A program made the translations under genes and the position numbers. Source: an uncultured Bacteroidales bacterium (lineage in GTDB: Bacteria > Bacteroidota > Bacteroidia > Bacteroidales > UBA932). Taken from it: DNA of 64,000 nucleotides. A model generated the notes under the pieces. The model worked only from the letters and a program-made list of their open reading frames with translations, was not told the origin of the DNA and searched no databases. The DNA lies in the NCBI GenBank assembly GCA_905234285.1, contig CAJOHK010000003.1, positions 6,268 through 70,267 on the forward strand. The letters run 5' to 3'. Positions 10,162 to 18,332 of the stretch are shown here, piece by piece; within the stretch, counting starts at the first letter, position 1; each line of letters begins with the position of its first letter.

Positions 10162-10256
10162 TGTCGTGCACAAAAAAGGCCTCAAATGTGCAGCACGTGG
10201 CTCCTGCATGCCACCTAACGTACAAATAGGGCCGATTTTGTTCACCAGGTGGCAGA
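10162..10256 (+). repeat. 95-bp inverted repeat, copy 1 (leader of peptide C)
   Basis: Base-for-base identical to the reverse complement of 18238-18332. Confidence 0.95.
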
Positions 10257-10265
10257 TTTTACAAC

Positions 10266-10409
10266 ATGAAGAAGAAGTACCTAATGCCGGAAACCGAAGT
10301 TCTTTGGTTAGCCCTTGAGCAACAGATTCTTAACCCGTCAAAGAATGGCAATTCGCACTATCTGGATGTTGAAGACGAAGAGGATCCTAACGGTGATTTT
10401 TGGAAATAA
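10266..10409 (+). CDS. short peptide C (47 aa), MKKKYLMPETEVLWLALEQQILNPSKNGNSHYLDVEDEEDPNGDFWK
   Basis: Hand translation; family N-terminus; 7 nt before the likely lipoprotein start. Confidence 0.75.
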   Translation: MKKKYLMPETEVLWLALEQQILNPSKNGNSHYLDVEDEEDPNGDFWK

Positions 10410-10416
10410 AAACTCG

Positions 10417-12798
10417 ATGGTTATGAATAATAAATATATCATTATACTGCCTATTCTGGCCCTTTGTTTTTCTTGCAAAAAAGAAAATGAGGAGATAATG
10501 AAACCTGAGCAACCCTTGACAACAGAGGCTGTGACGGTTATTGCCACTATCAATAATGAAGATGAGCCTGAACCCACGATGGCACCTGAAGTGAAAACCA
10601 CATATGAGATTGATGAGGTTAATCACCGAGCTATCTTCTATTGGAAAGGGGACGAGTCTTTTGCCCGCGTAATTAGGCACAACAGCGGGGATAAGCCTTA
10701 CGATCTGGATTACTTTACGTCTTCTGGTGAAAAGGTGGAATCCAGGACTTTCAGTTGCGATAGCCCAAAGACGGGTGATCCGGCTTACGAAGACTCTAAA
10801 ATAGCGTTTTATCCTAACTATGAGGTGGACTCAAAAGGTGCTAACATTTCATTTGATACAGGGCGAAACGATTCCCATTTTTATTATTCCATAGGTGGCG
10901 AATTGACATATGACAAAGATGCTCCGCTTGATGGCATTGTACCGATGGTTGGGTATTATGATGATGTAAACGAGGAATACGACTTCAAACCACTGACCGG
11001 CATACTGGCTATCAGGATGACGGGGATCCCGGCATCCGCCACAAAACTCACAATTTCGTCAGCCTCATATAATATGGCGGGTAAAACGATGAAGATTACA
11101 GATCAAACAGCTCTTTCTATTCTTCAAAGTACGATTAAGACTTTTTCTTATGATAAAGGCTTGTGTCAAAGCCTTTTAGCTACGAATCTAAGCAAATCGA
11201 AAACCTTTACTTTCTCTGGCTTGGATCCTAATGAGGAATACACCTTCTATTTCCCACTTCCCATATCGACGAATCACAACAGCGGTACAACTACGCTGAA
11301 TGATTTGAAGGTTACATTATATCAAGGGGGGAATGCTATTTATACGATGAGCACAACAAAAAGTTTGACGATTAAGCGTGGCACAATTACACGCTTACCG
11401 CTGATTACTTGTGCCCCAAAGAAGGCAAGGGTATATAATGATGCAAATAATCCTTACTTTGAGATGTATCATTTCCCATCAATTACGACAGTTTTTGCGA
11501 ATATATCTACAAGTGCCACTAATAATCCTAGTGAATATCAAGATGGCTTCTACCTTACGTCTCACCCGATTAATTATAGGTTAAGGAATTGGACAGGGAC
11601 CGGCAAGCTACAGAATTCTGGACAGTACTATCTTCATTATATAGCAACCGATCTGTCTTCATCTGCAAAAGCCACGAGTTTGAGCGGGCTAAACGATTCT
11701 CATGTGCTTGATTATGGTACTATACCGTTCTACTATATCAACGATACGGACAAAAATGCCATTGTCTCACAATATGTTAGAGATATTACTTCTGGATCAT
11801 TTACCGTGCCCTCTGGCTGGGAAAGTTTGGATGTACATGGAGACAATACCATTACCCTAGCGGTTGCTGATGATTGTAATAAAGGCAACATTATGATTAC
11901 AGAATTCGCCGGTTTCTGTTATGATGTGTCACAAAACACATTCTCCACAAACGCATATGATTTTTCACAATTCATGGATGGGAAACCTGTGTATGGTTGT
12001 TATTCGCAGAGCTATACATACACACAGTCCACAACGACTTATGGAGCAAAATTCTTTGATTTAAAGGATCAGACTTTTTATAAAGATGCATCCTCTTCCA
12101 ATCATAACCTTGGGACCGAACAAAAAGCGAATACAGAATTGGACATCACTTTTAACAGTGATGGATATACTCCGGGGACATATCATGACTTGGTTGTTTG
12201 GGATAATTATATTGGGAACAACTATGGTAATAATCTGACCGATTTCAATTTTTATTTCACTCACTATGTCGCTTTCAAGACCAAGGGCATGATTACCCTT
12301 ACCGGTTCCATGTTATCTACCAATTCCAGCTACGGCGAGGGAGGTGACGGAGACGCAGGCGGAATGGCCGCTCTTGTTGACAAGAACGCCAGCACTCGTT
12401 GGCATTCCAATTATAATGAATCTATTGCGACGGATAATCATGGAATCTATATCCAGATTAACCTTTCTAGCATTTCTAAAACAGTTAAGGACTTTACACT
12501 CAAATTCTTGAGCCGGGGAGATGCGAGTCACGGTCTTCCTAGCAAGTACAGAGTTGCAGTAAGTAATAATGGTACAGACTGGAGCTTTCTCACGGAAGAA
12601 GATATTCCCATTACCGCCGCACCAGGGACGTGGTATCAAAAATCATTAAGTGCTGGTGCTAATTACAGCTACATTCGTCTGTGCATAACGGAAATAAACC
12701 ACAATGATTCAAGTGAAGGGACTCAAACACTTACCAACACGACCGCAGATGGCAGCAGGTATACCCACCTCGCAGAAATCCAGCTCTGGGAGAACTAA
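10417..12798 (+). CDS. fimbrillin-like lipoprotein with F5/8 type C domain (start revised from 10315)
   Basis: MVMNNKYIIILPILALCFSCKKE lipoprotein signal; KTTYEIDEVNHRAIFYWKGDES; C-terminal STRWHSNYNESIATDNHGIYIQINL...HLAEIQLWEN. Confidence 0.75.
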   Translation: MVMNNKYIIILPILALCFSCKKENEEIMKPEQPLTTEAVTVIATINNEDEPEPTMAPEVKTTYEIDEVNHRAIFYWKGDESFARVIRHNSGDKPYDLDYFTSSGEKVESRTFSCDSPKTGDPAYEDSKIAFYPNYEVDSKGANISFDTGRNDSHFYYSIGGELTYDKDAPLDGIVPMVGYYDDVNEEYDFKPLTGILAIRMTGIPASATKLTISSASYNMAGKTMKITDQTALSILQSTIKTFSYDKGLCQSLLATNLSKSKTFTFSGLDPNEEYTFYFPLPISTNHNSGTTTLNDLKVTLYQGGNAIYTMSTTKSLTIKRGTITRLPLITCAPKKARVYNDANNPYFEMYHFPSITTVFANISTSATNNPSEYQDGFYLTSHPINYRLRNWTGTGKLQNSGQYYLHYIATDLSSSAKATSLSGLNDSHVLDYGTIPFYYINDTDKNAIVSQYVRDITSGSFTVPSGWESLDVHGDNTITLAVADDCNKGNIMITEFAGFCYDVSQNTFSTNAYDFSQFMDGKPVYGCYSQSYTYTQSTTTYGAKFFDLKDQTFYKDASSSNHNLGTEQKANTELDITFNSDGYTPGTYHDLVVWDNYIGNNYGNNLTDFNFYFTHYVAFKTKGMITLTGSMLSTNSSYGEGGDGDAGGMAALVDKNASTRWHSNYNESIATDNHGIYIQINLSSISKTVKDFTLKFLSRGDASHGLPSKYRVAVSNNGTDWSFLTEEDIPITAAPGTWYQKSLSAGANYSYIRLCITEINHNDSSEGTQTLTNTTADGSRYTHLAEIQLWEN

Positions 12799-18074: not shown

Positions 18075-18081
18075 TGGATGA

Positions 18082-18204
18082 TTAACCCCAAGTAGGTGTA
18101 TCCGGTCTTTCATTCAAACTATCCGCACCAGGAGACTGTGCTATGCATTGCTCCATGGAAAGTACAAGTACTTCCACCTCCGGCTGCATGTAATGTTCTT
18201 TCAT
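18082..18204 (-). CDS. short peptide D (40 aa), MKEHYMQPEVEVLVLSMEQCIAQSPGADSLNERPDTPTWG
   Basis: Hand translation; family N-terminus; 7 nt before lipoprotein start. Confidence 0.75.
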   Translation of the reverse strand: MKEHYMQPEVEVLVLSMEQCIAQSPGADSLNERPDTPTWG

Positions 18205-18237
18205 GTTTTTATACGGGTTATTGGTTATCATTTTTTT

Positions 18238-18332
18238 TCTGCCACCTGGTGAACAAAATCGGCCCTATTTGTACGTTAGGTGGCATGCAGGAGCCACGTG
18301 CTGCACATTTGAGGCCTTTTTTGTGCACGACA
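18238..18332 (-). repeat. 95-bp inverted repeat, copy 2 (leader of peptide D)
   Basis: Perfect reverse complement of 10162-10256. Confidence 0.95.

What the first reader, a model, noticed from the sequence alone, without database searches (positions are those of the whole stretch)
10162..18332. Perfect 95-bp inverted repeats bracket an 8.2-kb segment and sit just upstream of two peptide-lipoprotein modules
10162-10256 (+) and 18238-18332 (-) are identical over 95 bp. Each lies just 5' of a short-peptide ORF (9 nt before peptide C, 33 nt before peptide D), both facing inward. Recent duplication, gene conversion or recombination between them is implied. Inversion across them would exchange which module (C or D, with hipBA-2 and hicAB carried along) lies next to which upstream DNA, a possible phase-variation arrangement for surface proteins.
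Basis: partly seen in the sequence, partly recalled or inferred. Interest (0 to 1): 0.8.

Follow-up and report, generated by a model that had tools for sequence, protein, structure and literature searches.

The report
REP-like palindrome arrays, not a switch
The two identical 95-base inverted repeats are copies of a dispersed family of palindromic repeats (over 100 units in this rumen bacterium's genome) that look like the "REP" elements moved by RAYT transposases, so they are more likely genomic litter from a mobile system than a genetic switch for surface proteins.

Summary
But this is not a special pair of recombination sites. Each copy is about two units of a genome-wide family of intergenic palindromic tandem arrays. 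The unit is a 28/29-bp dyad, GTGMACAAAA-core-TTTTGTKCAC, plus a fixed 23-bp gap, giving a 51/52-bp period; about 117 units in 31 arrays. Congeners carry arrays with the same period and core but different, still self-complementary, arms. The same architecture (two hairpins 51-53 bp apart, A/T-GGCC/GGGG-A/T linker) flanks one subfamily of RAYT (REP-associated tyrosine transposase) genes across the genus, including one in this genome whose flanks align with the 95-bp element. Best reading: a REP/BIME-like array; the identity reflects recent local copying, because nearby arrays share longer exact matches than distant ones. The phase-variation reading has no positive support (no integrase-type recombinase on the contig; family members sit beside unrelated genes) but cannot be excluded without reads or strains. 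Unusual for REPs: no GTRG head, and the abundant family is not identical to the RAYT-flanking copies. Hence a new variant of a known kind.

The parts
10162..10256 (+). IR-A: 95-bp element, about two 52-bp units of the palindromic array family, partly degenerate
18238..18332 (-). IR-B: identical 95-bp copy; aligns with the flanks of the genome's own RAYT gene (CAAAATCGGCC[CT]TATTTG...GTTAGGTGG, read on the + strand)
10111..10161 (+). additional array unit directly upstream of IR-A (dyad 10115-10142), absent beside IR-B
18445..18682 (.). 5-unit array of the same family (51/52-bp period) outside IR-B
39889..40076 (.). array of the same family, 3-4 units
43860..44307 (.). array of the same family, 9 units, 52-bp period
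10266..10409 (+). short peptide C (47 aa)
10417..12798 (+). lipoprotein C with C-terminal F5/8 type C domain
13125..14671 (+). hipB-like HTH protein (13125-13424) and HipA (13421-14671)
14789..15561 (-). hicB (14789-15304) and hicA (15301-15561) toxin-antitoxin genes
15672..18113 (-). lipoprotein D (no Pfam domain found)
18082..18231 (-). short peptide D (MKEHYM start at 18204)
18352..18393 (.). perfect long-stem hairpin CATATAGGTCCCGAAAGA-loop-TCTTTCGGGACCTATATG between IR-B and the next array; single copy in the own-genome sequence examined

Best explanation
The 95-bp inverted repeats are two copies of one REP/BIME-like intergenic element. The family is an array of half-elements in alternating orientation with two symmetry centres per 51/52-bp unit: one centre is a CAAAA-(GGCC or GGGGTG)-TTTTG core, the other is the centre of the 23-bp gap. 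A Y1/HUH transposase of a genus-wide RAYT subfamily most likely recognises such palindromes as hairpins in single-stranded DNA and copies or reinserts them, preferentially nearby; arrays then lengthen by tandem slippage. The pair at 10162 and 18238 is a recent local copy that happens to be inverted; the 8.2-kb segment between is not an evolved switch. Shown: the family, its period, intergenic dispersal, arm self-complementarity in congeners, the matching architecture at RAYT genes, and similarity of the 95-bp element to the flanks of this genome's RAYT. Inferred: that a RAYT moves this family, and that copying rather than gene conversion made the 95-bp identity.
For: Strict dyad pattern: 105 places in the genome, 0 in the reversed control. 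117 units in 31 arrays, 42 periods of 51 and 37 of 52 bp, inter-dyad gap exactly 23 bp in 79 of 80 cases (118 units). Arrays are intergenic in all gene orientations. Congeners G097, G004, G020 and G124 have 50-52-bp arrays with other arms; arm positions -1 to -3 pair 78-98% against 36-64% when shuffled. In a motif-free palindrome scan of 1.27 Mb from 80 congeneric loci, centre distances peak at 51-52 bp. At 62 RAYT genes of one subfamily, 38 of about 80 palindrome distances fall at 51-53 bp and 27 of 62 loci qualify, against 1 of 21 other RAYTs. The linker core is in 27/38 RAYT-flank linkers, 5.3% of background windows and 90/130 of this genome's dyads. 51/52-bp tandem arrays directly abut RAYT genes in G070, G086 and G099. 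The 95-bp element aligns with both flanks of this genome's RAYT (scores 32 and 31; 500 shuffles each at most 22-23). The RAYT keeps HUH and Tyr in all 34 aligned sequences; Foldseek's top hit is 4er8, RAYT bound to a REP hairpin. Nearby arrays share longer exact matches: 95 and 48 bp, against a far mean of 16 and maximum of 41, P = 1.3e-4.
Against: The classical GT[AG]G head is absent (1 of 74 RAYT-flank hairpins). RAYT-flank copies in this genome (GCGGTTAGTGGT type) are confined to contig C17, so the abundant GTGAACAAAA family has no RAYT flanked by its exact sequence in this 78%-complete assembly; the same mismatch of arms is seen in G097, G124, G004 and G086. In G000 the two arms do not covary, and a mismatch at position -1 is common, so hairpin selection in this genome looks weaker than in congeners. 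The 95-bp strand folds only weakly (z -0.8 and -1.7), unlike the RAYT flanks (z -10 and -7). The RAYT link for this specific family therefore rests on architecture, core and one significant alignment.
Confidence: 0.72

Rival explanations
1. Phase-variation inverton: the 95-bp repeats are recombination sites, and inversion of the 8.2-kb segment swaps module C or D next to an outside promoter.
For: Perfect inverted repeats just upstream of two related short-peptide/lipoprotein modules facing inward. Bacteroidales are rich in invertible promoters (PMC8748976). A second inverted array pair sharing 48 bp brackets a gene on contig C28.
Against: The arms are pieces of a family of more than 100 copies beside unrelated genes. 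The invertible promoters of resistance genes in gut Bacteroidales lie immediately downstream of an invertase gene (PMC8748976); no Pfam phage-integrase gene lies on this contig. Peptide A's module has no copy.
Confidence: 0.08
2. Gene conversion or RecA recombination between two pre-existing arrays homogenised them to 95 identical bp; no transposase was involved in making this pair.
For: Near pairs are more alike than far pairs; arrays are internally homogenised; 95 bp could suffice for RecA recombination (established knowledge, not tested).
Against: The identical block is sharply bounded near the array edges and flanks are unrelated immediately outside. Five of seven near pairs share only 15-20 bp.
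Confidence: 0.35
3. The arrays are operator or nucleoid-protein binding sites: dimers bind GTGMACAAAA half-sites on one face of the helix every five turns (51-52 bp).
For: Conserved dyad half-sites, fixed 23-bp gap and a period close to five helical turns, kept across species. Half-sites vary independently in G000, as expected for protein half-sites rather than a hairpin.
Against: Arms differ between arrays of one genome (G004, G097) and between species; no restriction to a gene class or orientation. The same architecture flanks RAYT genes.
Confidence: 0.15
4. CRISPR-like array or a known Rfam RNA element.
For: Regular short repeats.
Against: The linkers are repeated within an array rather than being unique spacers. 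Rfam gave nothing near its curated cut-off.
Confidence: 0.01

Closest known systems
REP/BIME elements with RAYT (TnpA_REP) transposases (Nunvar 2010, PMC2817692; Di Nocera 2013, PMC3733652; Quentin 2018, PMC6006769)
   Same: Extragenic, about 100 copies per genome, imperfect palindromes, alternating orientation at regular spacing, lineage-specific sequences with compensatory arm changes; a Y1/HUH RAYT gene whose flanks carry the same architecture; predicted fold closest to the REP-bound RAYT 4er8.
   Different: No GT[AG]G head; a strict 51-53-bp two-centre unit with an A/T-GGCC/GGGG-A/T core; RAYT of about 290 aa with a long C-terminal extension; the abundant family differs in arms from the RAYT-flanking copies. 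Which Quentin subclass this RAYT belongs to was not tested.
Bacteroidales invertible promoters / invertons (PMC8748976)
   Same: Inverted repeats around a segment near surface-protein genes.
   Different: 8.2-kb segment; the repeat arms are pieces of dispersed arrays; no local invertase found.
E. coli BIME-2 arrays
   Same: Alternation of palindromic units with two kinds of spacer in intergenic DNA (from the literature and memory; not compared by sequence here).
   Different: Unrelated sequence; 51/52-bp unit with one fixed 23-bp gap.

Membership tests
REP/BIME element | many copies, extragenic | tested here: met
   105 strict dyads in the genome with 0 in control; 31 arrays, essentially all intergenic
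REP/BIME element | palindromic units, regularly spaced in alternating orientation | tested here: met
   28/29-bp dyads, gap 23 bp in 79/80, period 51/52
REP/BIME element | GT[AG]G or CGTC head at the hairpin foot | tested here: not met
   GTRG at 1 of 74 RAYT-flank hairpins; CGTC as first stem bases in 4 of 74. Filed as REP-like, not as a canonical REP.
REP/BIME element | cognate RAYT gene flanked by the same elements | tested here: inconclusive
   Architecture and core match at RAYT genes genus-wide and the 95-bp element aligns with this genome's RAYT flanks, but the exact abundant family does not flank any RAYT found
RAYT transposase (the 289-aa protein L139/P0001) | HUH motif, catalytic Tyr and Y1 fold | tested here: met
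   H52, H54 and Y112 invariant in 34 sequences; Pfam Y1_Tnp just above cut-off; NCBIfam REP_Tyr_transpos hit below its cut-off; top fold hit 4er8
Inverton | inverted repeats bounding the segment | tested here: met
   95/95 bp
Inverton | invertase gene adjacent or on the same element | tested here: not met
   No Pfam phage-integrase hit on contig C3; five elsewhere. Serine recombinases were not searched.
Inverton | both orientations seen in reads or strains | not testable with these tools
   No reads held; no other genome with the segment
CRISPR array | unique spacers between repeats | tested here: not met
   Linkers are repeated within arrays

The most novel reading that the evidence does not exclude
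A genus-wide class of RAYT-linked mobile tandem arrays whose geometry (51-53 bp, two alternating symmetry centres, A/T-GGCC-A/T core) is conserved while the palindrome arms are rewritten in every lineage, served by a long-tailed RAYT subfamily and lacking the GTRG head on which known RAYTs rely.
Probability: 0.45. Interest if true: 0.6.

Novelty: new variant of a known kind. Interest (0 to 1): 0.45.

Why it matters
If right, a REP/RAYT-type system has amplified more than 100 palindromic sites in a rumen Bacteroidales species, with a recognition signal different from the described ones. The genus offers many natural variants in which RAYT and repeat arms have changed while the 51-53-bp geometry stayed, so co-evolution of a domesticated transposase with its repeats can be tested directly. 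It also warns that perfect inverted repeats near surface genes in such genomes are not by themselves evidence of invertons.

Tried and rejected
Invertase near the repeats: none of integrase type found on the contig. CRISPR: rejected from the array sequences. Rfam: only sub-threshold matches. Viral origin: one IMG/VR contig with a single look-alike dyad, and no hit to the middle of the 95-mer. Orientation in relatives: the C/D segment is not next to the glycosyltransferase in any of 80 congeners. RAYTs L140 and L141 as cognate transposases: they carry their own different palindromes. The exact flank of RAYT L139 as source of the abundant family: only found on its own contig. A search for ACAAAA-TTTTGT dyads over the order showed no general enrichment outside the genus. 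Arm covariation inside G000 was sought and not found. A PDB sequence search with the RAYT profile gave only insignificant IS200-type hits.

Full report
Observation. The 95-bp inverted repeat is real and perfect, is the longest perfect inverted pair in the window, and lies 9 and 33 nt before the short peptides as stated. The window sits in a 2.08-Mb, 63-contig, 78%-complete assembly. Its nearest named relatives are uncultured, mostly rumen and omasum, Bacteroidales.

The repeat is not unique. Partial matches occur all over the genome. A dyad pattern taken from it occurs 105 times in the genome and never in the reversed control. I took stretches around the places listed and scanned them with the window: 117-118 units in 31 arrays. 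Units are 28 or 29 bp with a constant 23-bp gap, so periods are 51 or 52 bp. The core between the A/T arms is G/C-rich (GGCC or GGGGTG type). Within an array the linkers are repeated; between arrays they differ. The 95-bp element is about two such units, partly degenerate. On the left it sits in a three-unit array; on the right only the last two units are present.

Context. Arrays lie between genes in all relative orientations, so proximity to lipoprotein modules is incidental; the module of peptide A has no copy. The longest exact match between any two arrays is the 95-bp pair; the second (48 bp, also inverted) is another nearby pair, 1.9 kb apart on contig C28. Pairs within 12 kb are more alike than distant pairs (P = 1.3e-4), though with seven near pairs the result is driven by these two. 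This indicates recent local copying or conversion.

Relatives. The exact sequence is absent from 40 relatives and a strict asymmetric form of the dyad from 119 of 120 congeners. A looser inner pattern finds excess over control in several congeners (G097 32 vs 4; G124 14 vs 0; G004 15 vs 1; G020 10 vs 0). Their sequences show arrays with the same 50-52-bp period and inner ACAAAA...TTTTGT, but different outer arms. Those arms remain self-complementary. A scan that assumes no motif, over 1.27 Mb from 80 congeneric loci, also finds palindrome spacing peaking at 51-52 bp (five pairs, four of them clearly repeats). At the level of the order there is no general excess.

Link to RAYT. The genome encodes three Y1-type transposases, none flanked by the exact dyad. 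One (L139, 289 aa) has two long hairpins 51 bp apart upstream and a similar two-palindrome element downstream. Its homologue in G070 abuts a five-unit 51-bp array. In 62 genes of this subfamily from the genus, palindrome distances in the flanks concentrate at 51-53 bp (27 of 62 loci by a strict rule) against 1 of 21 other RAYTs. The linker between the two hairpins carries the same A/T-GGCC/GGGG-A/T core as the dispersed arrays (27/38, background 5.3%, own dyads 90/130; the pattern was chosen after seeing the sequences). The 95-bp element aligns with both flanks of L139 above all 500 shuffles. The subfamily is widespread (1,912 homologues; one source names a member RayT), keeps the catalytic residues and is predicted to fold like RAYT 4er8 (the TM-score over the whole query is low, 0.33, because of the C-terminal extension).

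What does not fit. The arms of the abundant family differ from those flanking the RAYTs, in this genome and in others. No GTRG head is seen. The 95-mer itself is a weak hairpin. In G000 the arms do not covary. So membership in the canonical REP class is not claimed, and the RAYT as mover of this family is an inference.

Phase variation. Nothing found requires it, and the nature of the repeats explains their presence without it; yet two 95-bp perfect repeats could recombine passively. Only reads or strains can decide.

Noticed in passing
window 59036-59141: Inverted repeat with core CACCCTACCG-CGGTAGGGTG matches palindromes near RAYT L141 (G000:C38; at 261 and 2386 of the locus) and one at L117:4258: apparently a second REP-like family with its own RAYT.
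   Followed up: partly
L140 871 and 2602; L112 7227, L113 3838, L115 3604, L125 7660, L136 3192, L138 5950: Hairpin ATTCAGTCCGGC-n-GCCGGACTGAAT flanks RAYT L140 on both sides and is dispersed in the genome: a third REP-like family.
   Followed up: partly
L131 4073-4151 and 6014-6143 (G000:C28): A second pair of inverted arrays sharing 48 bp exactly brackets about 1.9 kb with one long ORF.
   Followed up: no
window 18352-18393: Perfect long-stem hairpin between IR-B and the 5-unit array; single copy in the sequence examined, possibly a terminator.
   Followed up: partly
L226 (G099), L212 (G086), L198 (G070): Multi-unit 51/52-bp tandem arrays directly beside RAYT genes, each with its own sequence.
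   Followed up: partly
L039 8049-8912 and 13957-14823: Two related RAYT genes (about 60% identical to L139) about 5 kb apart in one rumen-type MAG.
   Followed up: no
array dyads of G000 (window and L112-L138): One arm with A and the other with C at the position next to ACAAA is commoner than expected (55 mixed vs 20 AA and 2 CC distinct units): a consistent asymmetry in the palindrome.
   Followed up: partly
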